IMG/VR virus record: IMGVR_UViG_3300009103_000004
Coordinates: 62,001-126,000 of that record
Strand: one strand, 5' to 3'
DNA length: 64,000 nucleotides
Source: a virus
Shown here: piece by piece, positions 2,332 to 28,925 of the stretch
How positions within the stretch are numbered: position 1 is the first letter of the stretch
How the letters are laid out: each line of letters starts with the position of its first letter
Program-made: the position numbers and the translations under genes
The notes under the pieces: model-generated
The model's database searches: none
What the model was told of the DNA's origin: nothing
Seen by the model: only the letters and a program-made list of their open reading frames with translations

Positions 2332-2337
2332 TATTTA

Positions 2338-2595: not shown

Positions 2596-2812
2596 AACTA
2601 TACTCGTCATCGTAGTACCCATCACTTTTAGTAAGCCTGAGCAAAACCAAATCTTCTATAACATCACAACCTAGTTTTCTAAGAAGCTTAACACAGTCCA
2701 TGCGACTAAACTTCTTTTCAACCTCCTCAAGCTCAATGGCATCGTAACCACTGTTTAGCATAGTGCTAACATAATCGCGTAGTAACTCCATGTCTTCTTC
2801 TAAATCACTCAT
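2588..2812 (-). CDS. Small acidic protein, unknown
   Basis: 74 residues, acidic and predicted helical (MSDLEEDMELLRDYVSTML start). It ends in a Tyr/Asp/Glu-rich tail (GYYDDEYSYE). It overlaps the GT-B gene upstream by 8 nt and the tail-anchored gene downstream by 8 nt, consistent with an operon member. The product is not recognised. It could partner the adjacent small membrane protein. Confidence 0.65.
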   Translation of the reverse strand: MSDLEEDMELLRDYVSTMLNSGYDAIELEEVEKKFSRMDCVKLLRKLGCDVIEDLVLLRLTKSDGYYDDEYSYE

Positions 2813-3698: not shown

Positions 3699-3712
3699 TG
3701 GGGGTAAGTGAC

Positions 3713-4549
3713 TTATCTAAGCGATGTAATTTTAGATAACTCGCTGGGTGTTACAATTTTATCAGAACTACCAAGGGCCTTTTCCATATCTCGTATACCT
3801 CGAACCAGCTTAAACATAGCATGTGGCTCAAGCGAACACAGCTGATCACTACCCCACATAGTTCTGTCTAGAGTAACGTGACGCTCTATTATTTCTGCAC
3901 CAAGAGCAACTGACGCTATAGTTGGGGTCAAGGCAAACTCATGACCACTGTAACCTATCTTGCATTTTGGGAATCGAGCGCCAAGCGTGGGCATACAACG
4001 TAAGTTTAATTCTTCTAATGGGGCTGGGTAAGATGAGTTACAGTGCAAGATTGCAACTTTAGTACTCTTATCTGTTTTAGTAATCCAACTGTAAGCATCC
4101 TCAACATTAGACATGTCACTCATACCAGTGGACATAATAACTGAATCAAAAGATTCAGAGCATGCACGGACCAAAGACTCGTTAACTATAGATGCTGAAG
4201 CAAGCTTCACCCAAGGAAGATTAAATTCTTGTAAGAACTCAACAGAATCCAAATCCCATGGAGACGCAGACCAAGCAATGTTGTTTGTACTGCAGTGCTC
4301 GTCTATTTCCTTATACTGATCCAAATCAAATTCAACACGATGCTTGTAAGCCAAATAAGTAGTCTTGCCCCATGGCGTATCCCGAACCTTCTCTTTCATA
4401 TGTTCTGGAACGCAAACATCAGGATTACGTTTTTGAAACTTAACTGAGTCAAAACCAGCAGCAGCTGCAATAGTTATAAGGCGCTTAGCTACATCAAGGT
4501 CGCCATTATGATTAATACCGATCTCGGCTATTGTATATACTTTACTCAT
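3713..4549 (-). CDS. neuB: Sialic acid synthase, NeuB-like, lacking the antifreeze-like domain
   Basis: The start is set at the ATG at 4549 (MSKVYTIAEIGINHNGD), overlapping the HAD gene by 8 nt. The product has 278 residues. The TIM-barrel motifs are present: GINHNG, SVKFQKR, KLASASI, CNSSYP at 170-175, KIGYSGHE and AEIIERHVTLDR. They cover the PEP-, Mn- and sugar-binding residues of N-acetylneuraminate synthase. Typical NeuB is about 340-350 residues with a C-terminal SAF/antifreeze-like domain that contributes an active-site Arg. Here the protein stops right after the barrel. It could use ManNAc, ManNAc-6-phosphate or a related hexose. The neighbouring HAD phosphatase makes a 9-phosphate route plausible. 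Confidence 0.88.
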   Translation of the reverse strand: MSKVYTIAEIGINHNGDLDVAKRLITIAAAAGFDSVKFQKRNPDVCVPEHMKEKVRDTPWGKTTYLAYKHRVEFDLDQYKEIDEHCSTNNIAWSASPWDLDSVEFLQEFNLPWVKLASASIVNESLVRACSESFDSVIMSTGMSDMSNVEDAYSWITKTDKSTKVAILHCNSSYPAPLEELNLRCMPTLGARFPKCKIGYSGHEFALTPTIASVALGAEIIERHVTLDRTMWGSDQLCSLEPHAMFKLVRGIRDMEKALGSSDKIVTPSELSKITSLR

Positions 4550-4916
4550 CTTTAAAGAAATCTTCAGAATATACACCGCGATCATCCACATAACAGTCAG
4601 CGCCGAACTTTACGCCTAGCCGAAGCTCGTGGTACTTCAGCCCCCATTCCTTTAACTGTTTCTTGGTCATCTCGGTCCACTCTTCAAGCTTTTCGGGATA
4701 ACTGGTTGCTCGTGCGGTATCTATGTATATGTAATGCCCAGATTCGTAGAGACGATTTACTAAAGCTATACGCTCCTTGTGAGGCTTAGCATCTCTATAA
4801 GTCTCCCCAACACTGGAGTATACACCATGATTCTTTGGATCTACTTGTGTACACAATGTACCATCCAAATCAAAACAAATGGAAGGCGCGGAATCTTTTT
4901 TTACTCTTTCACTCAT
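4542..4916 (-). CDS. HAD-family phosphatase (possible sialate-9-phosphate phosphatase)
   Basis: 124 residues, a minimal cap-less HAD protein. Motif I is ICFDLDGTL (nucleophile Asp16, Asp18), motif II is the YIDTAR strand and motif IV is CYVDDRG. It overlaps the NeuB-like gene by 8 nt and the GT7 gene by 1 nt. If the synthase makes a 9-phosphate product, this enzyme would dephosphorylate it before CMP activation. That step is inferred from context only. Nucleotide or sugar-phosphate phosphatase activity is also possible. Confidence 0.75.
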   Translation of the reverse strand: MSERVKKDSAPSICFDLDGTLCTQVDPKNHGVYSSVGETYRDAKPHKERIALVNRLYESGHYIYIDTARATSYPEKLEEWTEMTKKQLKEWGLKYHELRLGVKFGADCYVDDRGVYSEDFFKDE

Positions 4917-10882: not shown

Positions 10883-12511
10883 CTACATATGCTTAACTCT
10901 GTATTCAACTATAGAGTATTTATGAGTTCTATATAAAATGTCATAAGGAGACCTAGCAACAGAAGAATTACGATGAGCTAGTTTTCTGTTAGCTCTTTCA
11001 GATTTTCTCCTGTCCTTAATAGGGTAATTCTCAGTACGCTCACTTGTCGAATGAGGTATATGGAAAATGTAGTCCGACAAAGAATTAAATATAACGGACG
11101 TCACACCACTCTCGTCAAATCGTTCATATAAGTCAGTATCGTCATGACCCCAACCAACAAGTCTCTCATTGTACCATACAAAATCAGATTTATTGAAAAC
11201 ACAAAAACCCCCAAATGATTCGGAAAACCACCAAGCACCACGAATGTAGTAATCTGCCAGCCTTGTGCCAGTTTTGCGGTCAAGCAATAGGTAGTCCATC
11301 CATGTAGAAGACTTTATTGCGTAGTCAGTATCCAGCTTGATAACTACATCAAACACAGCCATGTCCACGGCAAGATTGTATGCCTTTCCCAAAGAAAAAT
11401 AAGACTCGTCCTCTACACGTATAATCCTGACATACCCAGCATCGACAAAGTAACGTATGACTTCGTTATCCATAATAGGAGAATCAGAAGCCCAATCAAC
11501 TACTATGATCTCAGTTATATATGGACAGTTTAGCCAAGTTGGTAAAGATTTTAGCAAGTTATCTATACGATTCATACATGCGCAAACTGCAGAAATTTTT
11601 AAATCGGAATTCTTGTGGTAGGCCCGTACATCCTTAAACCGTTTAGTAACTGGCAACTCATATACAACTCCTGTAGGTTCTACTCCACAAGCGGTGCCTA
11701 CATAGAAAGAATCCAATTCTTCGAATTCGTAAGACTTTTTTAAACCCCGAGATTCTGCGTAAGCATCCCATTGCTTTGCCCGATCCTCCCTAGGCATAAA
11801 ATTATCCATCTCACTTATGTACGACCTATAGTTGGGAAGGTCAGTTCTCAAATCAAGCCCACGCCTGACACCAAACAGGCGCTTCTGTCTGTTCAAAACT
11901 ACAACAGTGTCGACAATACATATAACACCTCCGCATAATGATGGGTCTACAATCTGACAAAAAAGCATATCCATGCCCCAACCTACCAGCTTACCATCGT
12001 ATGCGCCCATGAACATAGAAAGTGACTCCCTCTTGAAAGTTACAAAGTTCATCTCAGTAAAATTAGTTACACGAGCGTAGTTTTCATATACGGGGCGCAT
12101 AAACCAATGCGGTAGAAGACCTGCAGCGTGCTGAGCTGCTCCAGCTATTAATAGTTCTGAGCTAGAGTTAAGTACGTCAACTATATCCGACAAACTGCCC
12201 TTCTGAATACGAGCATCGTCATCCCATACAGTTACTGTATCAAACAACTTAATTCTTGATGACGACTTATGATACACGTAATGAAGATTCTGAAACTTAC
12301 TCCCAGAGCGTGCGTAAAATTCGTCAGCACCGCCGCGCAACTGTTTTTTCTTAGATTTGGATGTACCATAGAATACTATAATAACATAAAACCTACTCTT
12401 CAAATAACGAAGAGAGTAAGACGCAAAAACCTCATGATCACCGGCGGAAATAAAAATACAATCTCTACGCCCAGATAATTTAGGTTTTTTAAAATTACTC
12501 CAAAAACTCAT
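10883..12511 (-). CDS. Two-domain glycosyltransferase (DUF707-like + GT2/GT7C-like)
   Basis: I use the ATG at 12511 (MSFWSNFKK). The longer reading starts with TTG two codons earlier. Numbering below follows the longer 544-residue form. Domain 1 (to about 290) has VWDDDARI (DDD 99-101) and LVGWGMDML (178-185), as in DUF707-type proteins. Domain 2 (about 300-544) has a GT2 fold start (KISAVCACMNR), IKLDTDYA (DTD 396-398) and LVGWGHDDTDLYERF (453-467). The last resembles the GT7 C-terminal/GT27 acceptor site. The protein probably adds two sugars in sequence or works as a polymerase. Confidence 0.8.
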   Translation of the reverse strand: MSFWSNFKKPKLSGRRDCIFISAGDHEVFASYSLRYLKSRFYVIIVFYGTSKSKKKQLRGGADEFYARSGSKFQNLHYVYHKSSSRIKLFDTVTVWDDDARIQKGSLSDIVDVLNSSSELLIAGAAQHAAGLLPHWFMRPVYENYARVTNFTEMNFVTFKRESLSMFMGAYDGKLVGWGMDMLFCQIVDPSLCGGVICIVDTVVVLNRQKRLFGVRRGLDLRTDLPNYRSYISEMDNFMPREDRAKQWDAYAESRGLKKSYEFEELDSFYVGTACGVEPTGVVYELPVTKRFKDVRAYHKNSDLKISAVCACMNRIDNLLKSLPTWLNCPYITEIIVVDWASDSPIMDNEVIRYFVDAGYVRIIRVEDESYFSLGKAYNLAVDMAVFDVVIKLDTDYAIKSSTWMDYLLLDRKTGTRLADYYIRGAWWFSESFGGFCVFNKSDFVWYNERLVGWGHDDTDLYERFDESGVTSVIFNSLSDYIFHIPHSTSERTENYPIKDRRKSERANRKLAHRNSSVARSPYDILYRTHKYSIVEYRVKHM

Positions 12512-13139
12512 ATCCAAATTTATTGATGTCCTCAGAGTAAATGTCTGCCACAGCGGCTACGGAATCGGAGTCATAATATTCCGAGTAGCTCCCACGAGAT
12601 GTTTTGTTAGCGTGACCTAGTTTTAAATCTGGTAGTCCCAGTTTACTGGAAAGAAGAGAGTAATCCGTAGATAAGTCTTCAAGCTTGAAAACCGAATCAA
12701 CGAGAACGTTTCCGGAACTGTCGCAAACGTACTCATACTGAGGCTTCCTATGTATATGATTTTTGGCGTAGTCTAGGAATGCTATCTTCTTGCACCGGGA
12801 GTGCTTTCTTAGGAAGCGCCTGCACTCCTTTCTGATCCTTGTGACGCGAGGATCGCAATGGTGTGTTATCCACCTTCCCTTTATATTGAAATGAAACATT
12901 GAAACTAAGCGATCCCAAGGATTTCTTACTACCGCAAATGTAAAGTATTCGTTCCAAATGTCAGCACCATAGTGATCTATTATCTGCTCAGCAGTGGAAT
13001 GTCGCCATATATCACCCTTATTCTTTTTATCATCGGGGACGTAGTAATCCTTAGCACACCTCCTAATGCTTCTGTTTACAGAAACACTTCCGCACTTTCC
13101 TATGTTAACGTATATAAACTTATGTTTGTGACTAATCAT
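12495..13139 (-). CDS. Sulfotransferase (Sulfotransfer_2 type)
   Basis: 214 residues. The PAPS 5'-phosphosulfate loop is IGKCGSVS at 13-20 and the 3'-phosphate site is VVRNPWDRLVS at 70-80. The C-terminal YSEYYDSDS ... DINKFGYEF pattern recurs in the operon's other sulfotransferases. It would transfer sulfate from PAPS to a sugar hydroxyl. No membrane anchor is present, unlike Golgi carbohydrate sulfotransferases. It is followed directly by another sulfotransferase gene with a 4-nt overlap. Confidence 0.88.
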   Translation of the reverse strand: MISHKHKFIYVNIGKCGSVSVNRSIRRCAKDYYVPDDKKNKGDIWRHSTAEQIIDHYGADIWNEYFTFAVVRNPWDRLVSMFHFNIKGRWITHHCDPRVTRIRKECRRFLRKHSRCKKIAFLDYAKNHIHRKPQYEYVCDSSGNVLVDSVFKLEDLSTDYSLLSSKLGLPDLKLGHANKTSRGSYSEYYDSDSVAAVADIYSEDINKFGYEFLE

Positions 13140-13753
13140 TCTCCAAATTCATACCCAAAATACTCAATGTCTTTTGCGTATTTTTCCGCAACGATTTCAC
13201 GAGTTTCATCATCGTAGTATTCGGTGTAGTGTTTATGCGTTGATTTGTTGCGGTGTAGAAGTTCTTGTCGGGGTATTCCTATCTTGTCGCAAACAACGTT
13301 GAAGTCTTCTTGGAGATTTTCAAATCTTCCAACTAAGTCCACCTCACTCGACCAAGTTAGTTGCTCGGGTTCCCAGTACTTTCGATTTCTTAAAAAATCG
13401 CAAAAAGTATTACAACCCTCCAATGCTTTGGTATACATTTTGTAGCTTTCAATCCACACAGGATTAGTTGGGGGGTTTTCCTTCCAGTACTTCAACATTT
13501 TCTTGCGATAGGTATACTCACTAAAAACTTTAGCCCAAGAGTTTCTGACAAAACAAAAACTAAAATAACCAGCTATATCTAATTCTAAAGACCTGGTACT
13601 AAGAAGCTCATGCTTACCTGTGAATAATCTTCCCCTCCTAAGAACTGGGTGGTTACAAGGTTCCCCATAATTACCCAATACGGACTCTATGGAACTAGTA
13701 CCCGTCTTGGGAATAGCAACAAATACAAACCTATGCTTATGTGATATTATCAT
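13136..13753 (-). CDS. Sulfotransferase (Sulfotransfer_2 type)
   Basis: 205 residues. The PAPS loop is IPKTGTSS at 14-21. The 3'-phosphate motif is CFVRNSWAKVFS, in which the usual Pro after RN is Ser. The tail HYTEYYDDETREIV and an 'DIEYFGYEF' end are nearly identical to the copy at 15035-15787, suggesting internal duplication. The likely substrate is a different hydroxyl on the same glycan. It is coupled by 4-nt overlaps on both sides. Confidence 0.87.
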   Translation of the reverse strand: MIISHKHRFVFVAIPKTGTSSIESVLGNYGEPCNHPVLRRGRLFTGKHELLSTRSLELDIAGYFSFCFVRNSWAKVFSEYTYRKKMLKYWKENPPTNPVWIESYKMYTKALEGCNTFCDFLRNRKYWEPEQLTWSSEVDLVGRFENLQEDFNVVCDKIGIPRQELLHRNKSTHKHYTEYYDDETREIVAEKYAKDIEYFGYEFGE

Positions 13754-15034: not shown

Positions 15035-15787
15035 TTAATCTTCAAATTGATAACCGAAGTATTCTATATCCTTAGCGTAGCGTTTTGCTACAATTTCTCT
15101 AGTTTCATCATTGTAGTACTCTGTGTAATGCTTACCCTTTGCTTTGTTCACATGCGGTAGTTCCAAATCGGCACCTATACGTTCACAGACCTTTGGCCAT
15201 TCTTCCTTAAGGTTTTCCATCTTAATGATCATGTCCATACAATCTTGCCGTGTCTCGTCGACAATAAACGTTATCTGGCTAACGCCATGCCACTTCACCC
15301 ACGCGTAATCGGAACCTAACCATTTGTAGCCGTGACAGTTTCCTGGCTCAGAAAGACTTTTGACAAAGCCCTCAAAAGTGTCGCCGTGCTTGTCGTGAAA
15401 CTCTTTAAGAAATTCTCTACGAGTACGTAACCATTTTTCAGAGGATGCACTGTCGGGGTTCTCGACTACGGAGTCGGTAGTAGCGATCTGTATGTCGTAT
15501 TTGTAAGAAGACACGAGTCTAGACCAGGGGTTACGCACTATAGCAAACTTGAAGTACTCATCCCAGCACTCTGCATATGACGGATCATTATGAGGAGAAG
15601 GATATATCTTAGGTATCGGGTACTCCCGACCAATTTGATTCTTATGCCAATATCCCTTGTTAACCCAAGCGGGATCGTGCTTACCCTTACCCTTTATATG
15701 CTTGATATACCCAAACGCTCGCTCTACCGAAGAGCCTGCGTTCTTCGGAATGTGTATAAAAATGCATTTATGTTTATGGCTTATCAT
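15035..15787 (-). CDS. Sulfotransferase (Sulfotransfer_2 type)
   Basis: 250 residues, the longest stand-alone sulfotransferase here. The PAPS loop is IPKNAGSS at 13-20, the 3'-phosphate motif is FAIVRNPWSRLVS and the tail is HYTEYYNDETREIV. It starts MISHKHKCIFIH, nearly the same as the copy at 12495-13139. It shares the C-terminal block with 13136-13753. It overlaps the GT gene downstream in translation order by a few bases. Confidence 0.88.
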   Translation of the reverse strand: MISHKHKCIFIHIPKNAGSSVERAFGYIKHIKGKGKHDPAWVNKGYWHKNQIGREYPIPKIYPSPHNDPSYAECWDEYFKFAIVRNPWSRLVSSYKYDIQIATTDSVVENPDSASSEKWLRTRREFLKEFHDKHGDTFEGFVKSLSEPGNCHGYKWLGSDYAWVKWHGVSQITFIVDETRQDCMDMIIKMENLKEEWPKVCERIGADLELPHVNKAKGKHYTEYYNDETREIVAKRYAKDIEYFGYQFED

Positions 15788-16509: not shown

Positions 16510-17468
16510 TATATATATTTCTTCATACAATCATCTATTTTAGAAAAATCTGGGTACCCTAGATGTTTATAATATCTTTGATGCAGGGACAGTCCTATCC
16601 TTTTACCTTTAAGTGTTAGTCCTACTAAAGGAGATGGGGCACCTCTATAATGATTTATGTAAGCCAGATTAGGATCGCATACGACACTATGCGTATCCTT
16701 ATCTGCACAACCAGCATTATGTATAGATATGATGACAGGACTCTTTGCTAAAGTTTTATACATACCTTTAACCATTACCCATTTCTTCTTCTTTGTTTTT
16801 TTTGTCGGGTGATTAAATGTATCATAAGCGTATTCATGCATACTTCGTACTGGCACACCTGGTTTTCGAGATGGGCGAACTCGCTGATGAAGACGAAGGG
16901 CACCTAGTTTACCTTCTAGATTATGTTCGGATAACAAATCACCAATAGTGTCAGCCTCCATCCAAATAAACTCATCTGGGTCTATCAACATCCACCAGTC
17001 GGAATCATTATTCTCAATAGCGTCTTTATAAATAGATAATTGGGCATTGCTATTAACCTGACGTTTTCTAGAAACTCCCCAATTTTTGGACTCCAGCCGA
17101 TATGGCTTGTGCCAAGGTTTTAAATGAACTCCAGGGTATTTGGATGCGATGCTACGTAACCGTTCCATATTATCTTCATAAGAAGCATCAGATATGTGAG
17201 CCCCGGGCTTCATTTTCCACGCCTTGCCATCTTCCCTATCACCCTCAAACCAATCCGCAAAGTCCTTCTTACGAACTGATTCCTCTTTATACGAGTCGCA
17301 TAGTTCAACATCCCTAGAAGAATCGATTAAACGCTTATCTATAGACTTAGGGCCGTTCTCATAAATATGTATATCCGTGAAGCCGATTGACAAGTTGTGG
17401 TCGATCCACTCTTCTATAAAATCAATCTCCAAGCTAGGAAGTATAACAGTGGCTATAGAATATTTCAT
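16509..17468 (-). CDS. GT92/Glyco_tranf_2_4-like glycosyltransferase
   Basis: 319 residues. The start ATVILPSLEIDFIEEWIDHN then GFTDIHIYEN is the hallmark of GT92/DUF23-like transferases. WWMLIDPDEFIW supplies the acidic metal site. ISIHNAGC and AYINHYRG lie in the C-terminal part as in this family. GT92 enzymes add beta-1,4-galactose to core fucose in animals. Other relatives occur in bacteria, so the linkage is only suggested. Overlaps are 1 nt and 4 nt. Confidence 0.82.
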   Translation of the reverse strand: MKYSIATVILPSLEIDFIEEWIDHNLSIGFTDIHIYENGPKSIDKRLIDSSRDVELCDSYKEESVRKKDFADWFEGDREDGKAWKMKPGAHISDASYEDNMERLRSIASKYPGVHLKPWHKPYRLESKNWGVSRKRQVNSNAQLSIYKDAIENNDSDWWMLIDPDEFIWMEADTIGDLLSEHNLEGKLGALRLHQRVRPSRKPGVPVRSMHEYAYDTFNHPTKKTKKKKWVMVKGMYKTLAKSPVIISIHNAGCADKDTHSVVCDPNLAYINHYRGAPSPLVGLTLKGKRIGLSLHQRYYKHLGYPDFSKIDDCMKKYI

Positions 17469-18118
17469 TTGTTAAAACCCCAGCCAAACATGTCAGTGTC
17501 CTCACAATAGACTTTGCCAACTGTATCCACCAAGTCCCCTGTATAGTGTTCAGAACAAGAACCGTGCTTAGTTGTATTCTTTTTGGGTAGTAGAGAAACG
17601 TTAGGAGCTTCAAGGTAGTCGCAAAGCAAAGGTAGCATGGCGGTAATATCAGAAATATCGAACAAAAGTCCTACATCAGATTCAAACACGTTCTGGTAAG
17701 CAGTAATAATAGTAGAAGCTGGAATAACATGCCAAGCATCTCGCTCTCTACCCCCTTTACTACCGCCCACGTAATCCTTTACAAATTCCTCAAACGATAA
17801 GCCCTTTAGTGGGCTATACTGCTTGGGCGAATTGTTTAGCATTGTCCAGTAAGACAATATCCGCTCCCAGGGATTCCTTAATATTGCGAACGACTTAAAA
17901 CTGGAATCCACTCCAGCGTCCTGTAAAACCCTAAAATAGTTCTTATAGCCATCCAGCATCCACGCAGCATACCGCCTATCCACATTCTTCATCTTTTTAA
18001 ACGCAGGTAAGTCCTTAACCTCCAGAGAGTTGTCAGAAAAGAGTCGAGACTTCTTTATGGACGTACCGGCACACTTTGGTATGTGTATAAATAAAATCTT
18101 TCTATCAAAATCAATCAC
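17465..18118 (-). CDS. Sulfotransferase (Sulfotransfer_2 type), GTG start
   Basis: 217 residues. It starts at a GTG (V/M-IDFDRKILF), placed so that the PAPS loop IPKCAGTS falls at 13-20 as in its paralogues. The 3'-phosphate motif is FAILRNPWERILS. The C-terminus carries HYTGDLVDTVGKVYCEDTDMFGWGF, a variant of the common tail. The substrate is unknown. It lies between the GT92 gene and UDP-galactopyranose mutase. Confidence 0.87.
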   Translation of the reverse strand: MIDFDRKILFIHIPKCAGTSIKKSRLFSDNSLEVKDLPAFKKMKNVDRRYAAWMLDGYKNYFRVLQDAGVDSSFKSFAILRNPWERILSYWTMLNNSPKQYSPLKGLSFEEFVKDYVGGSKGGRERDAWHVIPASTIITAYQNVFESDVGLLFDISDITAMLPLLCDYLEAPNVSLLPKKNTTKHGSCSEHYTGDLVDTVGKVYCEDTDMFGWGFNK

Positions 18119-18124
18119 GACATT

Positions 18125-19141
18125 CTAAAAATTACGAAGCTTGGTCATAACTTGTTTTATAGCCATCCACATGTCTAAATACTTATAAGTAGCCAGCCGC
18201 CCCAGGAACAACACATTGTTCTGTGATTGAGCTATCTTCTTGTACTTGCTATATATGTACCGGCCCTCACCGAAGTTCATTGGGTATATGGCGAGGTTCT
18301 TTCCAGGTATATGTTGTTGGGGATAGTCCCTGGTTATCACTGTTTCTGGACCTTGCTCGTTCAAGTATACGCTATTGTCTGAAGTACGATTGTACGGAGC
18401 GTCTCCACATTCATTCAATATAGCACCCTTATCCCAGTTAAACTCTGCCTCATCCTTGGTGACGACAGTGTGCTCGAACCTAAGGGATCTGTACGGAAGG
18501 TGACCATGAGCGTGGTCGCAATAATCATCCACCTTGCCTGTGTATATGAGTTTGTCACAACTGTACATGCCATCCATCCACCGCTTCCATTCGTCGGGGC
18601 CAACGCCAAGATTAACCTCAATACCGGACAACATGTTGTTCATCATATCAGTATACCCACGAACAGGTATGCCTTGGTGCTTATCTGTAAAATATCTATC
18701 GTCCCAATCGTCGCGCTTGCCAGGGACACGGTTGGTTATGGAGCTGGGGAGGTCACACCAAGGTACGCCCCAGTGGCGCTCCGAGTACTTGGTGAAAACA
18801 AGATCCCTTATTTCTTCAGGAGTGAGTGATCTGCCGAGCTGCTCTTCAGTCTTCTTATTGTAGGGTATACTGATCCTCCCTAGATCAGTGTTGGCCTCTA
18901 CACGATGCGTATATCCGTTAAACGAAGTATACCTATTTACAAACTCCCAGACCTCATCGTCATTCGTGTGGAATATATGCGGGCCGTATTGGTGTACGGT
19001 TACATTGTTAAGCAAGCCATCAAAACAGTTGCCCCCGATATGACGCCTAGTGTCAAATACCTCTACAGAGTGTCCCTTGTCCCGCAAAAGTATTGCAGAG
19101 ACAATCCCGGATAGTCCGCAACCAACAATGTTGATTTTCAT
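18125..19141 (-). CDS. glf: UDP-galactopyranose mutase
   Basis: 338 residues. It interconverts UDP-Galp and UDP-Galf and so supplies galactofuranose. The FAD motif GCGLSG starts at residue 7. It is followed by RRHIGGNCFD, HQYGPHIFHT, a WGVPWCDLP stretch, RVPGKRDDWDDRYF and late LAIYPMNFGEG/VLFLGRLATYKYLDM blocks, all characteristic of bacterial Glf. The length is slightly shorter than the usual 360-390. Its presence implies that one of the nearby transferases uses UDP-Galf. Confidence 0.93.
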   Translation of the reverse strand: MKINIVGCGLSGIVSAILLRDKGHSVEVFDTRRHIGGNCFDGLLNNVTVHQYGPHIFHTNDDEVWEFVNRYTSFNGYTHRVEANTDLGRISIPYNKKTEEQLGRSLTPEEIRDLVFTKYSERHWGVPWCDLPSSITNRVPGKRDDWDDRYFTDKHQGIPVRGYTDMMNNMLSGIEVNLGVGPDEWKRWMDGMYSCDKLIYTGKVDDYCDHAHGHLPYRSLRFEHTVVTKDEAEFNWDKGAILNECGDAPYNRTSDNSVYLNEQGPETVITRDYPQQHIPGKNLAIYPMNFGEGRYIYSKYKKIAQSQNNVLFLGRLATYKYLDMWMAIKQVMTKLRNF

Positions 19142-19932
19142 CCAGACTTACTACTAAACGGCAACTCATTTAGCAAGTCTTTAGGGCCATATATAACTGG
19201 TGATTGTTTCAACTTACTGCGTTTCCTGACCCTACCCGAGAAGGCCCTGAAGAGTTCAGCCCAAGAACTGTTTCTATACTTGGGAGTGCGTATGTAGTTA
19301 AGGAATACGGCGGTCATCAAACCTTGCCTGCGCCTGCGGTACACAACCTCATATGCCACGCCACCAGAGTTGCAAGCAGCCAGCAAAATGTGACGCTGAG
19401 TTTCAGGATCCTTCTGCTTCCTGCCTAGCTTGCGTACGGCAACACCATCGCCTAGCTCACTTATCTTGTCACGTATAGGCTCGGGGTGAAAATCCGTTTT
19501 GTTATCCTCATCAGTCATGGTGCCGCTATGGCATGCATCTATTATAAGCGTAACCCCAACACCTCTGTTGTGACCCCACAAGCATTGCTTTATATCATCA
19601 TCAGTAAGCGCATCATCCCAATCGTGGTCATAAGTTATAAGGCATTCGTCTAAAAAGTCCGCCTCGTCATCGTCCTTATCAGGTACTTGACCGCCGTGAC
19701 CACTAAAGTAGAACAGTACATGGTCGCCACTAGTTGAAGTGTTTATAAGAGTTTTAAGTGCAATCAGTATATTTAACTTTGTAGCTTTTTCATTAAGTAG
19801 CATTTGTATGTCGTTAAACTTGAACCTGTTAGAACATACACGAGCTACCTTAGACGCATCATTCATACAGCCTCTAAGGTTTTTTCTTGAATCCGCATAT
19901 CTGTTTATACCAACTATTAGTGCTCTATTCAT
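19138..19932 (-). CDS. Metacaspase (caspase-like C14 peptidase)
   Basis: 264 residues forming a single p20-like domain. The catalytic His79 is in VLFYFSGHGGQ and Cys134 is in IIDACHSG. The first strand is ALIVGINRY and an acidic DDDEADFLDECL loop follows the His. No death or prodomain is present. Metacaspases cleave after Arg or Lys. The acidic S1 environment seen here fits that, but the target is unknown. It overlaps glf by 4 nt inside a glycan operon. Roles could be host-death control, maturation of a viral protein or defence. Confidence 0.88.
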   Translation of the reverse strand: MNRALIVGINRYADSRKNLRGCMNDASKVARVCSNRFKFNDIQMLLNEKATKLNILIALKTLINTSTSGDHVLFYFSGHGGQVPDKDDDEADFLDECLITYDHDWDDALTDDDIKQCLWGHNRGVGVTLIIDACHSGTMTDEDNKTDFHPEPIRDKISELGDGVAVRKLGRKQKDPETQRHILLAACNSGGVAYEVVYRRRRQGLMTAVFLNYIRTPKYRNSSWAELFRAFSGRVRKRSKLKQSPVIYGPKDLLNELPFSSKSG

Positions 19933-21004: not shown

Positions 21005-21652
21005 TTATCTGTTTATTTTATTGGGATTAAAGATATACGACCAAGCTCTTTCTAAAAAATGACCTTCTTCTGGATCGCGTTCATTACTTACGGTTGTTAG
21101 TAACTTTCTATAATATTTTTTCGAATGTGACAACACATATTTCTTTGAAACTGAGAAACATGCACCAAAAGAACATCTAAATTCATCTTTGTCAGGAACT
21201 TCCAAATTTAAATATTTTTCCCACCATTTTTTAAAAGTTAACTCCGACCTAGTGAAGTTTTTCCATTTTAACATTCTTGGTATATGATCCCAGTTAGTAT
21301 ACCTGTTGCTTGATTCGTTACTATCAAGTTTCATGGAAGCAGATGGCTTGTCCGTATCTATGTCTAAGTATAAATCCCACCTGTAGCCGTAACCATGTGG
21401 TCTCGGCTCGCCCTGAACAAATACAGTTATATCTGACAGAGTATCATAGTTATTAACTATATGTGTAAGATACGTATGTGATTCCCTACCTATGTTAGGC
21501 ATGCGTTTTATCTTATCTATACGCTCCAATATCTCTGGGCGTATAGCGCGCCTGTCTTTAGAGTAAACAGTTACCTTAACATCGTCAGGGACATCCAGTA
21601 CCCATTTCAGATCTTCCTTATACCTAGCTACTACAATTTCTTTTGTTATCAT
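21005..21652 (-). CDS. DUF3431-family protein (putative glycosyltransferase-like)
   Basis: 215 residues. The pattern VVARYKEDLKWV, NIGRESHTYLTHIVNNYD, TVFVQGEPRPHG, FGACFSVSKKYV and EEGHFLERAWSYIF is the DUF3431 signature. DUF3431 proteins are found in fungi, algae and bacterial glycan clusters and are thought to be transferases. Its presence among sulfotransferase and glycosyltransferase genes fits that. Gene ends touch the neighbouring sulfotransferase start (TAATG-type overlap). Confidence 0.78.
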   Translation of the reverse strand: MITKEIVVARYKEDLKWVLDVPDDVKVTVYSKDRRAIRPEILERIDKIKRMPNIGRESHTYLTHIVNNYDTLSDITVFVQGEPRPHGYGYRWDLYLDIDTDKPSASMKLDSNESSNRYTNWDHIPRMLKWKNFTRSELTFKKWWEKYLNLEVPDKDEFRCSFGACFSVSKKYVLSHSKKYYRKLLTTVSNERDPEEGHFLERAWSYIFNPNKINR

Positions 21653-22272
21653 TAACTAAATGAGTAATCAAATTTCTCACAATCAATTTTAAAGACATCA
21701 CCTATAATGTCCCGTGTTTCAGAATCATAGTAAGAAGAATATTTACCACGGTCGCCAGTATTAAGGCGGCGCAAAGTATTTTGCTTATCCGGCATATCCA
21801 ACTTTCTACATACCTTGTTAAAGTCAGTAAGTAATTGCTCAAAACGTCCTATGAAGTCAACTAGTATATTACCTGAATCATCGGTAAGCCACAGATATTG
21901 AGGACTAAGCTCGAGAGTAGAGTCCAAACCAGAATGCCCGAGAGTAGTGTTTGGATCATTATTAACCCATTGAACGAATCGAACCCAATCTGAAAAAAGG
22001 GTTGTACCGAACATGTTGGTGCATTGTTGCAGGAGTTTCTTGTGCGCGGGCCCATTAGATCGCAAACACATTGTATGGAATGATACCATACGGTCCCACG
22101 GATTCCTGACAAAAGCGAAAGCGAAGTAGTCCTCGTATGACGCACCCAACAAGGTCTTATATTGCAGGGCGGTAAGGTGGCGATCCCTCCTATTAAATAA
22201 AGTACGCGTTATAGATGTTCCTGCACACTTTGGAATGTGTACATGGATACACTTGTACTTGTTAGATATCAC
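21652..22272 (-). CDS. Sulfotransferase (Sulfotransfer_2 type), GTG start
   Basis: I set the start at the GTG at 22272, which forms GTGA with the epimerase stop. It gives a start V/M-ISNKYKCIHVH matching paralogues that begin MISHKHK. 206 residues. The PAPS loop is IPKCAGTS, the 3'-phosphate motif is FAFVRNPWDRMVS and the tail is YSSYYDSETRDIIG. A TTG at 22293 would add seven unconserved residues. Probable carbohydrate O-sulfation. Confidence 0.87.
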   Translation of the reverse strand: MISNKYKCIHVHIPKCAGTSITRTLFNRRDRHLTALQYKTLLGASYEDYFAFAFVRNPWDRMVSFHTMCLRSNGPAHKKLLQQCTNMFGTTLFSDWVRFVQWVNNDPNTTLGHSGLDSTLELSPQYLWLTDDSGNILVDFIGRFEQLLTDFNKVCRKLDMPDKQNTLRRLNTGDRGKYSSYYDSETRDIIGDVFKIDCEKFDYSFS

Positions 22273-23186
22273 AAACCAATGCTTTCCTTCCAACCAGGAA
22301 CCCAGTCCTCTAGGTTCATAGTCGGTGCCCAGCCCAGTACGTCACGTATCTTATTGTTGTCAGCAAGTGTCTCCCTAGGCTCTATGACAGGGTCCAGCTG
22401 AACTCGGTCACCACCGATAAGATCCGCCAAGTCGTTTACAGACCTGTTATCACAGTTACCTACGTTGAATACTTCACCACCACCAATCTTACTAGATTCA
22501 GATGCAAGGATGTTAGCACGTACGACATCACGTACGTAAGTGAAATCTCTACGCTGCTCACCATCACCGTTAATAGTCAGTGGCTTGCCTTGCAACCTCT
22601 GATCAGCAAAAATGCCCATAACCAGTGCGTATGCTCCAGTAAGAGGCTGTCTCTCACCGTAAACGTTAAAATACCTGAGGCAGACTGTAGGCAGAGAATA
22701 AACATCAGAGAATAGCTTACAGTAAATCTCGCCTATGAGCTTTTGCGCTGCATATGGGCTTAGGGGGTTTGTAGGGTGTTCCTCATCAGATGGTAAATAC
22801 TCAGGCTCTCCTAGTACCGAAGATGACGAGCTGAAGACGAAACGGTTGACATTGTAATCGCTACATAGCTTTAGCATGCGCAGAGTACCGCCAACATTTA
22901 CTGAGTCAAACCCAACGGGATCTTCTATAGAAGGCTGCACACGAGCCTTGGCGGCAAGATGAAACATAGTGTCAACACCACCGTCCAGCTCAGATATAAT
23001 AGCAGCTTCGGAACACTCCTGGCTTATATCGACTATAAGCAACTTTGACTTCGTGTTTACATTCTTATATACGCCGGTGGACATATCATCTACCACCAGA
23101 ACCTCGTCACCCTGTGATATGAGCTCGTCAACAAGATTGCTGCCAATGAAACCCGCACCACCTACTACTATATGTTTTTTACTCAT
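22269..23186 (-). CDS. NAD-dependent sugar epimerase (GalE/WbpP-like)
   Basis: 305 residues, an extended SDR. NAD motif GGAGFIGSN is at the N-terminus, DISQE and FHLAAKARV follow, the catalytic Ser cluster is SSSSSVLG and YAAQK is the YxxxK pair. RYFNVYGERQ and FTYVRDVVRA also match GalE-type C4-epimerases. Substrate may be UDP-Glc/Gal or UDP-GlcNAc/GalNAc, which would feed the galactose-using enzymes here (GT7-like, glf). UDP-glucuronate enzymes are less likely. Confidence 0.88.
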   Translation of the reverse strand: MSKKHIVVGGAGFIGSNLVDELISQGDEVLVVDDMSTGVYKNVNTKSKLLIVDISQECSEAAIISELDGGVDTMFHLAAKARVQPSIEDPVGFDSVNVGGTLRMLKLCSDYNVNRFVFSSSSSVLGEPEYLPSDEEHPTNPLSPYAAQKLIGEIYCKLFSDVYSLPTVCLRYFNVYGERQPLTGAYALVMGIFADQRLQGKPLTINGDGEQRRDFTYVRDVVRANILASESSKIGGGEVFNVGNCDNRSVNDLADLIGGDRVQLDPVIEPRETLADNNKIRDVLGWAPTMNLEDWVPGWKESIGL

Positions 23187-23236: not shown

Positions 23237-24667
23237 TTAATCTACAGTGATTACGCTATCTGCAACAGAATATATGTTATTGTTATAGTCTAACCTGCCG
23301 TGGTAGCAATACCCTAAGCGCATTAACTTGGTGTGGTACACGCTAGTTTTCCACTCATGTATCGGAGACTCGGATATTATTATAGGAAGTTGCTGCTCTA
23401 TCAAATGCAACGCACCTCGTATAACCGACCACTCGTAACCTTCCGTATCGAGATGTATGACAGATACCTCACACTCTTTAGGCAAGTATGAATCTAAAGT
23501 TGTAGCTTCCACGGTTTGAACTTCGCCATCTTCCTCTAGTGTACTAACTCTGGACCCACCACCAAGCTCACCCCTCAAACGGGTGCTTACAACCATATCT
23601 ACATGTCCCTGTTGGCGGGATAGCGCCTTGTTCTCCAAAACCACGTTGTCTAACTTATTTAACTCTATGTTACGGACAGCATACTCGTAATTCTTTGGAA
23701 CAGGCTCAAAAGCATAAATAGTACCAGAAACCCCAGCACTCAAACCAGGAAGCATCTCACCTATGTACGCACCAGCATGAACTATAGATTTTCCGTCCGA
23801 ATTAGCTGTAATAAAATCAATGGTTTCACGCTCCCATACTTCACTGTCGGATAGCGTATGATATACAGGACGCGAGCAGTGACTGTTGGGCATGTAGAAC
23901 CTACCGTGTTCGTTCTCAAATAAACTCTCGCCCTGATGTTGTTTAGTCACTTGTAACTTGTATACACTTTCTTCCTCCTGCTTCTCACGCCAGTTGTCAA
24001 ACGTAAGCTCCTCGTGACCCTTATATTTATGCTTGAACACACCGCGATAGTTGCGTCCATAACATCTTGTACATATATCGTCTTTACACACGGTAAAATC
24101 AGACCCCTCAGAAACATCCTCCCAAGAAACTGCTTGTCCATAAGATTGATTAAAATACCTCTTCACTCCCCTAGAAAACGCAGTAGGGCCCGTGAGTGCA
24201 TGAACTCTATCATACCTACGACAACATATATTTCGTGTCACAACCTCTATAACTTTTTCAAGCATGGGGTGTTGGGGCTCAAACACTAAAGCCCATTGTG
24301 CGTATAACTGTGTACCATGGTAGCCATGTATAGGCTCGCTACTAATTAAGGCAGCATCTGTTTCATTCAAAAAATGAGATAATGTGCAAACAATAGTAGC
24401 GTCCATATCCAAATACACACCACCGTCTTGATACATTATGAGATAACGCCAAAAATCAGTCTTAGCAACAATGTTAGCTAACTGATTGTAAGCAAGCAAT
24501 ATGTCACCGTCAAAATAGTCATGCACATACGAATCTATTTCAGCATCTTCAAATATAGTATGTTTGAAATCTTTATTCCTATCCATAAATAACTCTGCTT
24601 GTGCTAAGGCAGGTTTAGGAATATTACTAACGTCCGGGTAGGTTTGGAATATTTGTTTCGGTATCAT
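23237..24667 (-). CDS. GT32 glycosyltransferase fused to FkbM methyltransferase
   Basis: 476 residues. The N-terminal domain (1-230) begins IPKQIFQTY and has TDFWRYLIMYQDGGVYLDMD, the Och1/GT32 DxD motif (DMD 87-89). The C-terminal domain (about 275-470) has IVHAGAYIGEM, YAFEPVPKNYEYAVRNI and SVIHLDTEGYEWSVIRGA, the FkbM signature. The fusion suggests that a sugar is added and then methylated by the same protein. It overlaps the sulfotransferase gene by 4 nt. A 50-nt gap separates it from the epimerase. Confidence 0.88.
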   Translation of the reverse strand: MIPKQIFQTYPDVSNIPKPALAQAELFMDRNKDFKHTIFEDAEIDSYVHDYFDGDILLAYNQLANIVAKTDFWRYLIMYQDGGVYLDMDATIVCTLSHFLNETDAALISSEPIHGYHGTQLYAQWALVFEPQHPMLEKVIEVVTRNICCRRYDRVHALTGPTAFSRGVKRYFNQSYGQAVSWEDVSEGSDFTVCKDDICTRCYGRNYRGVFKHKYKGHEELTFDNWREKQEEESVYKLQVTKQHQGESLFENEHGRFYMPNSHCSRPVYHTLSDSEVWERETIDFITANSDGKSIVHAGAYIGEMLPGLSAGVSGTIYAFEPVPKNYEYAVRNIELNKLDNVVLENKALSRQQGHVDMVVSTRLRGELGGGSRVSTLEEDGEVQTVEATTLDSYLPKECEVSVIHLDTEGYEWSVIRGALHLIEQQLPIIISESPIHEWKTSVYHTKLMRLGYCYHGRLDYNNNIYSVADSVITVD

Positions 24668-25389
24668 TTGTATCCAAGTAGCTCAAAATCTTCCTTAAAA
24701 TACTCCCGCGCCATGGCCTCGGACTCATCGTCATAATAATCCATATAAGGCTTACCAGCATCTTTTGCCTTTCGCGTAGTTGGGAGTTTTATCTTTGGTA
24801 TACCCAAATCAGAACATACGGCGCTGAAGTCATTCTGTAAATTCTCAAAGCGAATAAGCCTGTCAACCAGAAGTTGCCCATCACGGTTAGGTATATAACA
24901 AATTTGTGGGCGAGTGTGAGTCCACGTATGCGGTCTCCAATTTTTTTCCGCAGAACCAGAAAGTAACAAGCTCAAAGCTTCTTTAAATCCTACTTCCTGG
25001 TATTGAAGTACATAGTTATAACTAGAGACAAAGCGAGATAAAGGGTGTCTGCATTGGGTAAATTTGTAAGCATCTTCAAAAAATGCTTTGTAACGCTGTG
25101 AGTAATCCCACCACTGCTCACCGTTAACCTGGCAGATGTGAGTTTTGGATGGAAAATCCCCAGACAGGTACTTACCAGGAAACTTATCCAATGGATGGTG
25201 GTCAGACATGATTCGAATTATGCCGTCAGCATTTAAGCGTTTACTCGTTCGGTATTTATCAAACATATCACACTCAAACTCATGTGAATCTGCATGCTTG
25301 CGCTCAAAATAAAGATCTGACAAACCCAGAAGTGCAGCCCTGACTGATGTGCTGGCCGTCTTGGGTGCTCTAAACCAAATTGCCTTCAT
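24664..25389 (-). CDS. Sulfotransferase family protein
   Basis: The ATG at 25389 (MKAIWFRAPKTASTS) is chosen. The longer frame to 25515 lies inside the upstream gene. 241 residues. The PAPS loop is APKTASTS and the 3'-phosphate motif is FTQCRHPLSRFVS, where the canonical RNPW is RHPL. The tail YMDYYDDESEAMAREYFKEDFELLGY resembles the operon's other sulfotransferases. It is the most divergent stand-alone copy, so its substrate may differ. Confidence 0.82.
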   Translation of the reverse strand: MKAIWFRAPKTASTSVRAALLGLSDLYFERKHADSHEFECDMFDKYRTSKRLNADGIIRIMSDHHPLDKFPGKYLSGDFPSKTHICQVNGEQWWDYSQRYKAFFEDAYKFTQCRHPLSRFVSSYNYVLQYQEVGFKEALSLLLSGSAEKNWRPHTWTHTRPQICYIPNRDGQLLVDRLIRFENLQNDFSAVCSDLGIPKIKLPTTRKAKDAGKPYMDYYDDESEAMAREYFKEDFELLGYK

Positions 25390-28234
25390 GTGTCCATTTA
25401 GTGTTAAAATATTTTTGTTTTTCTGAAAAAGAATCAGGAAACAATTTATTACCAGTACCACCCCATTCATGTTCAAAGCCTCCGGATGAGTTGATTCGTA
25501 GTATCTTGTATCCACTATCCTTAAGCTGAAGGCATAAGTCTGTATCTTCTAGCCAAAAGGGCTTGAACTTTAAATCCATCTCAAATGCAACACCATAGAG
25601 AGATCTTCTGAAAATTTGACAACAACCAGCTAGAGTGTCCACAAACCCCTCGCCATCACCGTCAAAGACATCAGTATGTTCAAACGTAGAGTAGTCTTGA
25701 AAATAAGCACCCACAACTCCACACATACCAATACCAGTGTCGGATAACACAAATTTTGCTCTATCAAGAAAAGAACTGTTACGGATGTAAGAGTCACTGT
25801 CTACACTAACAACTATGTCGCCACGCGCTTCCTCAAACAGAACAGCCCTACCCCCGGCAACACCGTCATTGTCATCAGAATAAATTACTCTAACTTTTGA
25901 AAAGCGCTCCTCAATCAAGCGAAGCCACTCTCTAAACTCAGAGTTACTAGCGTTATCATATATTAACACCTCCTCTATGTCATCACGATGCTCAGCTAAC
26001 TCTAACCACGTAGACATGCAATCCTTTGTTTTATCCAACCTGTTGTGTGTTAAAAATACTAAGGATATAGAGGCCTGGGACATATCGTTGTAAGCAGGGG
26101 CTGCAAAACTGGCGTACATGGATTTAGAAGCGGATATGTATTCAGGCGTAATAACTTCATCGTTAACAGACTCATCATGATTCCACAAATGTACCGAGTA
26201 GGATCCGCGATATTCCTCTTCGTACTGCGCGCTATCTTCAGATAACAAACAATCATTTATCTTATCCCACAGAGGCCAGAAAAAAGAATGCGATCCCAAA
26301 ATCTTCAGTTTGTTCTGAGGCCAGTGCTTGGAATTTGCTATAACGTTAGGGACAACAACAGAATGCCAATCCCAAGCGTCGTCCCTACCCGCAGATTTGA
26401 AGGACCTGTATGAGTATATCCAATCAAGTATAAATTCAGATCCAGGCTTGGCCACTATAGTCGCATTACACAGACCATAATAATCATATTTATCGTAAAG
26501 TGCAGGATCCATAAAAATGCGAGCGGAATCCTGTATACCAAGAGATGTCTCAATATCGTAAAGATTTTCAAATGAAGAAACAGTTATGGTGTCCAAATCA
26601 AGGTATACACCACCATACTTGTACAACATTAGCAACCTAACCACATCAGACATATGGGCGTAATGCACAACTGGGTTACCAAAGATCTCGTGTACAAGAT
26701 CAACCTTGTTCATAGTGAGGTAGGGCTTTATTAGATCCCACCACACACCATGTGGCTCAGAATGATAGTGGAAGTAAACAGCGTCTGGAGCGTTATAGTG
26801 TATAGCTGTCTTAATAGCCAAGTATTGAACAAAAGTAAACTCCTCTGGAATATTGGACATACCAAAAGAGAAGTGGAATATATTCGGAACCTTGTTGTGA
26901 TCATACGAAATAGGATCTGGTATAAAATCCGGGGTTACGCTTGTGCCATTCTCAAAAACATAACCGCCTAACTCAATGTCTTCGGAAAAAGACTTGGCTA
27001 CGATCTCCCTAGTCTCGTCGTCGTAGTAATCCGAATAATGGTTGGGGTATGTCTTGATGGTGTCGCTGAATGTGACACCTTTGAATATAGAAGAGTCAAG
27101 TGAGTGCCTATCTTCGACGCAAAAGACATGATCAACACAGTCGCCCAAGTAATACTGTTGTTTGCGAACATTGGTTGTACGAACGTAGTCTTCAAAACTT
27201 ATAGTGTCTGAAGCACGTTTGTCAAAATCACGAAAGTACATAGAAACCAACCGCTCCCAGGGGTTAACAACAAAAGCAAAAGAAGTGTAGGAGTCACAAG
27301 TGTCCTGACCGTAAATATCTCTAACCTCAGAAGCCCTGAGCTCTACCGGGTTGTACAGGCCAGTGTCCACCATTGCTTGTTTGCAATTATCATCTGGGAG
27401 CGTAATTGGTATGAGTTGACGCTTGTGGTTTATAAGAGGCAAATGAAGCCTGTACAAATCTGCGTCCAGTTTGGTTGAAGGCTTACGCATGGAGAACCAG
27501 CCCGGGCCACACTTGCTGTCTTTACCAGAATGGTTCTCACCAGTACCCATGTTATATGCAGCAGCAGTTACATTGGGCCATTTCTCCAAACTGTCATAAC
27601 AGTTAAAGAAATAAGTCTCGTAGTTCATATGACACCCCAGAACACCCTTGAGGAAAAAAGGATGTACATTATCTCGTATGTCCTTGGCTGAAGACTCAAC
27701 GGACAACTTGTCCATGGATATATCTGTTATAAGAGTACGGTAGTTAAGTATATGAGAAGTACCGCAAGTTTCTCTGAAGCCCACGCGATGAGTAATCTTG
27801 TAGTTCTGTACATACACACCGCGATCAAACCACCACCCCATCCTACCAGGCATGTCCTTAACCGACGAAACTGTCTTATCCGAAATAAAATCATCAGCGT
27901 CAAAGAACATTACATACTCAGGGTCATACTTCTCAGCCGCTATCAACCCTACCACAAACTTAAGGCCCCTGTCATAATTACAAGCTGGCACACCAGTAAC
28001 TGGGCCATCAGCAAGAGATGGCGAATCGAAGCCCACCTCTACAAACTCAACGTGATCCTTTATTCTATGGTTATCGGAAAAGTCATCCAGTATCCTGTTG
28101 CACACTACTATTACACGAAAGTCCTTGTCTGTCTGGCTGCACACCGAAAATAGGGTGTCTCTAAGCAGGTCCCAGACGCGCTCATAGTAAAAGCTATTCT
28201 TAGGGTGCCTTACGGAGGTTATAAATGTAAACAT
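25370..28234 (-). CDS. Four-domain fusion: GT-A / sulfotransferase-like / GT32 / GT2
   Basis: 954 residues. Domain 1 (1-260) is a GT-A of the putative rhamnosyltransferase type with FFDADDFIS (110-118). Domain 2 (about 268-430) has the sulfotransferase 3'-phosphate motif FAFVVNPWERLVS (319-331) and the tail YSDYYDDETREIVA. The first PAPS loop is replaced by ITLPDDNCKQ. Domain 3 (about 449-690) is GT32: DVVRLLMLYKYGGVYLDLD (DLD 546-548). Domain 4 (722-945) is GT2: LVFLTHNR, VDSDS (811-815) and WLEDTDL. It looks like an assembly-line enzyme, and the sulfotransferase part may be inactive. Confidence 0.87.
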   Translation of the reverse strand: MFTFITSVRHPKNSFYYERVWDLLRDTLFSVCSQTDKDFRVIVVCNRILDDFSDNHRIKDHVEFVEVGFDSPSLADGPVTGVPACNYDRGLKFVVGLIAAEKYDPEYVMFFDADDFISDKTVSSVKDMPGRMGWWFDRGVYVQNYKITHRVGFRETCGTSHILNYRTLITDISMDKLSVESSAKDIRDNVHPFFLKGVLGCHMNYETYFFNCYDSLEKWPNVTAAAYNMGTGENHSGKDSKCGPGWFSMRKPSTKLDADLYRLHLPLINHKRQLIPITLPDDNCKQAMVDTGLYNPVELRASEVRDIYGQDTCDSYTSFAFVVNPWERLVSMYFRDFDKRASDTISFEDYVRTTNVRKQQYYLGDCVDHVFCVEDRHSLDSSIFKGVTFSDTIKTYPNHYSDYYDDETREIVAKSFSEDIELGGYVFENGTSVTPDFIPDPISYDHNKVPNIFHFSFGMSNIPEEFTFVQYLAIKTAIHYNAPDAVYFHYHSEPHGVWWDLIKPYLTMNKVDLVHEIFGNPVVHYAHMSDVVRLLMLYKYGGVYLDLDTITVSSFENLYDIETSLGIQDSARIFMDPALYDKYDYYGLCNATIVAKPGSEFILDWIYSYRSFKSAGRDDAWDWHSVVVPNVIANSKHWPQNKLKILGSHSFFWPLWDKINDCLLSEDSAQYEEEYRGSYSVHLWNHDESVNDEVITPEYISASKSMYASFAAPAYNDMSQASISLVFLTHNRLDKTKDCMSTWLELAEHRDDIEEVLIYDNASNSEFREWLRLIEERFSKVRVIYSDDNDGVAGGRAVLFEEARGDIVVSVDSDSYIRNSSFLDRAKFVLSDTGIGMCGVVGAYFQDYSTFEHTDVFDGDGEGFVDTLAGCCQIFRRSLYGVAFEMDLKFKPFWLEDTDLCLQLKDSGYKILRINSSGGFEHEWGGTGNKLFPDSFSEKQKYFNTKWTHEGNLV

Positions 28235-28881
28235 CAGTCAAAGGTATATTTAAACGTTTCTATATCTTCAGCATACAGCTTAGACACTATGTCCACAGAG
28301 TCACTATCATAGTACTCTCTGTAATCCTTTTTACGCTCGGACTCGTTCTTAACCTCGAGTGCGGATGTTCTCAACCTAAGCTTAAGCGTAGAGGCTATCA
28401 AGCCCAAGTCATCCGTAAGAGTTTCGTATCTTCCTATAAAGTCTGGGAGCAGGTGACCCTTGTAACAAACAAACTCAACCTGTGGGAGTAAGTGAGGAGA
28501 ACTCTTGTAGCTGTAAGGTATAAAGTGAGCCTTGGCATTAAACCAAGTATCATGGTTCTTCACAAACTCGTTGAAATCACCATCGTAATGCTGAATGTAT
28601 AAATTTGAAACACGATTATCCGTAAAGTTTATACCACCCAGCGCCAAATAGTGGAAAGCTGACACAAGACGATCCCAAGGATTTCTTACAAAACATAGTT
28701 TGAAGTAGTCTGCCCACAAGTCAGATGACTTTCCGAAGTTGTCATAGAGATGCTCCATACTCTCATGCTCACCGATTTGCATATCTATGTCGTGTGTCTT
28801 TCTCAATTTATGGAGTAGGGCTGTGCCAGCGACCCTGGGAACATGAAAGAATATAAATCGCTTGTCGTAGCAAATGTACAT
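28234..28881 (-). CDS. Sulfotransferase (Sulfotransfer_2 type)
   Basis: The ATG at 28881 is chosen over a TTG/GTG two codons earlier. 215 residues. The PAPS loop is HVPRVAGT, where the usual Lys is Arg. The 3'-phosphate motif is LCFVRNPWDRLVS. The tail DYREYYDSDSVDIVSKLYAED is the shared block. It is the first gene after a terminator/promoter gap, so it may be the first gene of the glycan operon. Its stop touches the start of the four-domain gene. Confidence 0.86.
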   Translation of the reverse strand: MYICYDKRFIFFHVPRVAGTALLHKLRKTHDIDMQIGEHESMEHLYDNFGKSSDLWADYFKLCFVRNPWDRLVSAFHYLALGGINFTDNRVSNLYIQHYDGDFNEFVKNHDTWFNAKAHFIPYSYKSSPHLLPQVEFVCYKGHLLPDFIGRYETLTDDLGLIASTLKLRLRTSALEVKNESERKKDYREYYDSDSVDIVSKLYAEDIETFKYTFD

Positions 28882-28925
28882 CACCAATAGATAAAAAAAA
28901 GAACCACGCCTGTCAACGGATACAT

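What the first reader, a model, noticed from the sequence alone, without database searches (positions are those of the whole stretch)
25370..28234. Four-domain fusion GT-A / sulfotransferase-like / GT32 / GT2, with a degenerate PAPS loop
Seen: four domains in order in a 954-residue protein. The first sulfotransferase motif reads ITLPDDNCKQ instead of an IPKxAGTS-type loop, while the second (VVNPWERLVS) and the tail are kept. Inference: the sulfotransferase unit may be a structural or acceptor-binding remnant in an assembly-line enzyme.
Basis: seen in the sequence. Interest (0 to 1): 0.7.

Follow-up and report, generated by a model that had tools for sequence, protein, structure and literature searches.

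The report
Phage glycosyltransferase trio with dead sulfotransferase
A marine-type phage makes one long protein that carries three sugar-adding enzymes with a broken sulfate-adding enzyme wedged between the first two, and a related phage carries the same protein broken in the same way, so the dead part seems to be kept for a job other than adding sulfate.

Summary
The 954-aa, four-domain ORF is real (25370-28234, minus strand). It lies in a sulfotransferase/glycosyltransferase island of a tailed-phage record. The degenerate first PAPS loop is confirmed. That Arg is present in 182 of 182 compared phage sulfotransferases, and the first-loop Lys/Arg in 178 of 179. Both are absent here. A full-length orthologue (925 aa, 47% identical) exists in a related phage contig. 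It shares the R-to-V change and also lacks the second-motif Ser. Its replaced first loop shares P-D-x-x-C-[KR]-x-A with ours. Elsewhere the parts are separate: domain 1 is a lone gene beside sulfotransferase genes, and GT32-GT2 is a two-domain protein. The four-domain protein therefore looks like a join of three modules, with a captured sulfotransferase in the middle that lost its cofactor sites but was kept in frame. All three GT domains keep their acidic motifs. Best reading: a trifunctional glycosyltransferase with an internal non-catalytic pseudo-sulfotransferase, probably a spacer or acceptor/partner-binding module. PAPS-independence and any role are inferred, not assayed. The full-length AlphaFold model was unusable.

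The parts
25370..28234 (-). 954-aa four-domain protein GT-A / pseudo-sulfotransferase / GT32 / GT2
   Evidence: full-length orthologue L115:5001-7778, 47% identity
27470..28234 (-). Domain 1, aa 1-255, GT-A-like glycosyltransferase; DADD at aa 112-115
   Evidence: PF00535 marginal; 18 viral loci with free-standing homologues; D112, D114 and D115 invariant in the 13-row alignment
26945..27451 (-). Domain 2, aa 262-430, sulfotransferase-like unit without PAPS-binding residues
   Evidence: AF2 pLDDT 84.9; Foldseek hits are sulfotransferases
27377..27406 (-). Former 5'-phosphosulfate loop, ITLPDDNCKQ, aa 277-286
   Evidence: Lys/Arg in 178 of 179 compared phage sulfotransferases, Asp here and in L115; predicted helix from aa 282
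27242..27271 (-). Former 3'-phosphate motif, VVNPWERLVS, aa 322-331 (Arg to Val323; Ser331 kept here, Tyr in L115)
   Evidence: Arg in 182 of 182, Ser in 180 of 182 compared sequences
26099..26926 (-). Domain 3, aa 437-712, GT32-type (YLDLDT, DXD at aa 546-548)
   Evidence: PF04488 45.4 bits
25373..26083 (-). Domain 4, aa 718-954, GT2 (DSDS at aa 812-815, WLEDTD at aa 894-899)
   Evidence: PF00535 47.4 bits; D3-D4 also occur as a separate 681-aa protein, L137:4675-6720
28234..28887 (-). Upstream free-standing sulfotransferase, intact motifs (HVPRVAGTA, FVRNPWDRLVS); its stop overlaps the fusion start (TGATG)
   Evidence: PF03567 66.2 bits
24664..25389 (-). Downstream free-standing sulfotransferase, intact loop (RAPKTASTS) and CRHPLSRFVS; probable start at 25389, overlapping the fusion's 3' end
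   Evidence: PF03567 41.1 bits
12495..22293 (-). Five more free-standing sulfotransferases in the cassette (12495-13139, 13136-13753, 15035-15787, 17465-18118, 21652-22293)
   Evidence: all keep the first-loop Lys and the RN[PS]W Arg

Best explanation
The protein is a trifunctional glycosyltransferase of a tailed phage, with a pseudo-sulfotransferase as its second domain. Shown by sequence: four domains in one frame; loss of the PAPS-binding Lys/Arg and of the 3'-phosphate Arg; the same losses in a divergent orthologue; the same modules found as separate proteins elsewhere. Inferred: an island gene for domain 1, an adjacent sulfotransferase gene and a GT32-GT2 gene were joined; the sulfotransferase, now internal, stopped binding PAPS and was retained as a folded spacer that positions the GTs or holds the growing glycan or a partner protein (the flanking active sulfotransferases are candidates); sulfation itself is done by the free-standing sulfotransferases of the island. 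The three GT domains would add sugars in sequence to one glycan.
For: Of 182 aligned phage sulfotransferases, 182 have the 3'-phosphate Arg, 178 of the 179 with a residue there have the loop Lys/Arg and 180 have the Ser; the fusion has V, D and S, and the orthologue V, D and Y. The column where 166 of 182 carry His, a candidate catalytic base, reads E and G. The orthologue is collinear and 47% identical, in a phage contig with shared flanking genes. Domain identities are 52/36/45/55%, so all four domains are maintained. Domain 2 folds confidently (pLDDT 84.9, pTM 0.80) and matches viral sulfotransferases (E 2e-5 to 1e-3). The GT acidic motifs are conserved. Domain 1 is a separate gene next to a sulfotransferase gene in most loci that reach far enough, including domain 1 then sulfotransferase with a 4-base overlap in L098. 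GT32-GT2 is a separate two-domain protein in L137-L139. Precedents: PBCV-1 A111/114R with three GT domains (PMC7826918); LH3, whose central GT-fold domain appears to have lost activity and separates two catalytic domains (PMC6082870).
Against: No biochemistry. Only two members are known (this record and IMGVR_UViG_3300037190_000807), so retention is judged from one pair. Basic residues (K285 here, R in the orthologue) sit in the replaced loop and could still bind an anion. Inter-domain geometry could not be modelled (full-length AF2 pLDDT 46). The spacer or binding role is inferred by elimination.
Confidence: 0.62

Rival explanations
1. Domain 2 is still an active sulfotransferase that binds PAPS through different residues.
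For: Fold kept; Ser331 kept in the window protein; a basic residue (K285, R in L115) near the old loop.
Against: The loop Lys/Arg, the 3'-phosphate Arg and the commonly His column are lost in both members, and the Ser in one. The unit has shrunk to about 170 aa, and further in L115. The loop is predicted to be helical. Other phage sulfotransferases fused to GT domains keep their motifs (L037, L074).
Confidence: 0.07
2. Domain 2 is neutral debris of the fusion that has not yet been deleted, with no role.
For: Long stem branch in the tree; C-terminal half only 28% identical with gaps; Ser lost in one member.
Against: No stop or frameshift in two divergent members; 36% identity overall, 44% over the former cofactor half and 61% over the 3'-phosphate strand-turn-helix; a shared new motif P-D-x-x-C-[KR]-x-A-x(4)-G-L-Y-[ND]-P-V-x-L.
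Confidence: 0.13
3. Domain 2 has been given a new ligand-binding role: the old cofactor site now binds another ligand, such as a sulfated acceptor, a nucleotide or a partner sulfotransferase.
For: The replaced loop is itself conserved between the two members (14 of 29 residues over the region), as is the VVNPWERL helix; in both phages the protein lies between sulfotransferase genes.
Against: Only two sequences; a helix-capping or packing role explains the same conservation; no ligand known.
Confidence: 0.15
4. The ORF is an assembly or gene-calling artefact.
For: None beyond the rarity of the architecture.
Against: A collinear orthologue at 47% identity in an independent contig, in a shared gene neighbourhood.
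Confidence: 0.01

Closest known systems
Sulfotransfer_2 (PF03567) phage sulfotransferases (PHROG 3347)
   Same: Fold, RNPW-type helix position and C-terminal YYDDET...EDIE..GY tail; sister genes in the same island
   Different: First-loop Lys/Arg, 3'-phosphate Arg and the usual His replaced; shorter; internal to a larger protein
Chlorovirus PBCV-1 A111/114R (PMC7826918)
   Same: A viral multidomain protein that carries several glycosyltransferase domains in one chain
   Different: Algal virus, not a phage; the domains described are all GTs and no dead sulfotransferase is reported
Human LH3/PLOD3 (PMC6082870)
   Same: A central enzyme-fold domain that appears to have lost activity separates catalytic domains
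   Different: The central domain is a GT fold, not a sulfotransferase; unrelated protein
SULT4A1 (PMC11275347)
   Different: Keeps PAPS motifs and the active-site His; single-domain vertebrate protein; its activity is still debated
Phage GT-sulfotransferase fusions L074:1510-2916 (GT14-ST) and L037:5959-7941 (ST2-GT25-ST4)
   Same: Sulfotransferase fused to glycosyltransferase in marine-type phages
   Different: Their sulfotransferase motifs are intact

Membership tests
PAPS-dependent sulfotransferase (PF03567) | Catalytic Lys/Arg in the PAPS-binding loop (PMC11625862) | tested here: not met
   178 of 179 compared sequences K/R; Asp in the fusion and in its orthologue
PAPS-dependent sulfotransferase (PF03567) | Arg of the 3'-phosphate strand-turn-helix (RNPW) | tested here: not met
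   182 of 182 Arg; Val in both
PAPS-dependent sulfotransferase (PF03567) | Ser of the 3'-phosphate helix (PMC11625862) | tested here: inconclusive
   Ser331 kept here, Tyr in the orthologue; 180 of 182 Ser elsewhere
PAPS-dependent sulfotransferase (PF03567) | Fold: central sheet with strand-loop-helix and strand-turn-helix | tested here: met
   AF2 pLDDT 84.9; top viral fold matches with a name are nearly all sulfotransferases; PDB matches are sulfotransferases but weak, E 0.025 or worse
PAPS-dependent sulfotransferase (PF03567) | Score above the Pfam gathering cut-off | tested here: not met
   20.4 bits alone, 16.7 in the full protein, cut-off 22
PAPS-dependent sulfotransferase (PF03567) | Sulfate transfer from PAPS | not testable with these tools
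   needs an assay
GT32 / Gly_transf_sug (domain 3) | PF04488 match and DXD | tested here: met
   45.4 bits against 23; YLDLDT
GT2 (domain 4) | PF00535 match, DXD-type motif and ED motif | tested here: met
   47.4 bits against 23.3; DSDS, WLEDTD
GT2-like GT-A (domain 1) | PF00535 match above cut-off | tested here: inconclusive
   23.2 bits against 23.3; invariant D112, D114 and D115

The most novel reading that the evidence does not exclude
The old PAPS site has been rebuilt into a new binding site with its own conserved motif (P-D-x-x-C-[KR]-x-A ... G-L-Y-[ND]-P-V-x-L plus VVNPWERL), so that a former sulfotransferase now recognises the glycan, a nucleotide or an active sulfotransferase partner and couples sugar addition to sulfation in a phage glycan assembly line.
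Probability: 0.15. Interest if true: 0.75.

Novelty: new variant of a known kind. Interest (0 to 1): 0.5.

Why it matters
If true, it is a clear case of a sulfotransferase captured by gene fusion, stripped of its cofactor sites and kept as a building part, in a phage. My paper searches found no sulfotransferase described as a pseudoenzyme of this kind (one library only). The separate modules in other phages give a natural before-and-after series for testing how an enzyme becomes a scaffold. It also warns that counting sulfotransferase domains in phage genomes overestimates sulfation capacity.

Tried and rejected
Full-length tblastn against annotated phages: no match. First viral scan with the single protein: none. 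Scan of bacterial and archaeal genomes: only domain-1 relatives. DNA pattern for VVNPWER in viral contigs: 10 stretches, and in the frames printed only the orthologue is a sulfotransferase, so the Arg-to-Val form is not widespread there. Full-length AlphaFold with a 13-row alignment: pLDDT 46, not used. PDB fold search: sulfotransferases dominate the top but no E below 0.001, so only supportive. Considered that loss of the motifs follows from fusion itself: rejected, since two other phage fusions keep them. Tree placement of the two domain-2 units: one clade (100/99) on a long stem; the nearest active relative cannot be named. Residue numbers run one higher than the protein numbering used here.

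Full report
What is there. The ORF at 25370-28234 on the minus strand encodes 954 aa without a stop. The window is part of a 167-kb virus record with tailed-phage genes: large terminase, portal (weak match), DnaB-type helicase, DNA polymerase, UvsX-like recombinase. The gene sits in a long minus-strand island of glycosyltransferases, sugar-nucleotide enzymes and seven free-standing sulfotransferases. The upstream sulfotransferase's stop overlaps its start codon, and the downstream sulfotransferase's frame overlaps its 3' end.

Domains. aa 1-255: GT-A-like, PF00535 just under its cut-off, with clear homologues in 18 other viral loci besides L115. aa 262-430: sulfotransferase-like, under the Pfam cut-off (20.4 bits against 22) but matched to a sister gene at 4.7e-12 in a small database. 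aa 437-712: GT32. aa 718-954: GT2.

The PAPS sites. I aligned the unit with sulfotransferases from this phage and from 77 viral loci, later 182 sequences. The loop Lys/Arg is present in 178 of 179 sequences with a residue there and is Asp in the fusion. The Ser is kept. The column that is His in 166 of 182 is Glu, though alignment is less sure there. By the definition used in a recent review (loop Lys/Arg, helix Ser, sheet architecture; PMC11625862) the unit fails the first criterion. A caveat: one of the two retrieval patterns covered the second motif (Arg or Val allowed); the other was the C-terminal tail and does not bias it.

The orthologue. A scan with domain 1 found L115:5001-7778, 925 aa, collinear over all four domains and 47% identical. 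Its sulfotransferase unit reads IPDARCRKAL for the loop and YVVNPWERLAY for the second motif: same Arg-to-Val, and the Ser is lost too. The two contigs share flanking genes, mostly at 30-65% identity, including UDP-galactopyranose mutase, a caspase-like protein and a DUF3431 protein. So this is a conserved protein of one phage group, not an assembly accident.

Retention. Identities per domain are 52, 36, 45 and 55%. Within domain 2, the half with the former cofactor sites is 44% identical, the 3'-phosphate strand-turn-helix 61%, and the C-terminal half 28%. Neutral debris would not be expected to look like this, but it is one pair of sequences, and at this distance synonymous sites are expected to be saturated, so no dN/dS was attempted.

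Origin. In most other loci that extend upstream of it, domain 1 is a lone gene directly after a sulfotransferase gene; in L098 it comes directly before one, with a 4-base overlap. Domains 3 and 4 form a separate 681-aa protein in L137-L139 (three contigs probably of one phage population). The four-domain protein is thus a join of three modules found apart. Which fused first is not known.

Structure. AlphaFold of aa 256-438 with 51 rows gives pLDDT 84.9 and pTM 0.80, with a helix starting at aa 282, where active enzymes have the glycine-rich loop. I could not run an active control, so the loop claim rests on the known fold. The leading viral fold matches are sulfotransferases. The full-length model failed.

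How it works. Most likely the three GT domains act on one glycan and domain 2 is a folded, non-catalytic spacer or binding module. Precedents are three GT domains in one viral protein (PMC7826918) and the accessory domain of LH3 (PMC6082870). No APS kinase was found in the phage record, so PAPS for the active sulfotransferases would come from the host; this is inferred and the record may be incomplete.

Verdict. New variant of a known kind, interest 0.5.

Noticed in passing
window 794-4591: Sialyltransferase of family GT29 (794-1645), a CMP-sialic-acid-synthetase-like gene (1642-2331) and a NeuB-like gene (3713-4591): a phage-borne sialic acid pathway.
   Followed up: partly
window 19138-19932: Caspase-like peptidase C14 (PF00656, 5.9e-31) inside the sugar island, kept next to UDP-galactopyranose mutase in the related contig.
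   Followed up: partly
L037:5959-7941: Three-domain phage protein sulfotransferase / GT25 / second sulfotransferase type (PF17784), motifs intact.
   Followed up: no
window 23237-24667: GT32 fused to an FkbM-type methyltransferase, another multidomain sugar enzyme of the same island.
   Followed up: no
window 12495-13139: Free-standing sulfotransferase with a slightly altered loop (NIGKCGSVS) but Lys and Arg kept; among the free-standing sulfotransferases of the record it is the closest to the fusion's unit.
   Followed up: partly
window 62797-63840: Bro-N / anti-repressor-like protein.
   Followed up: no
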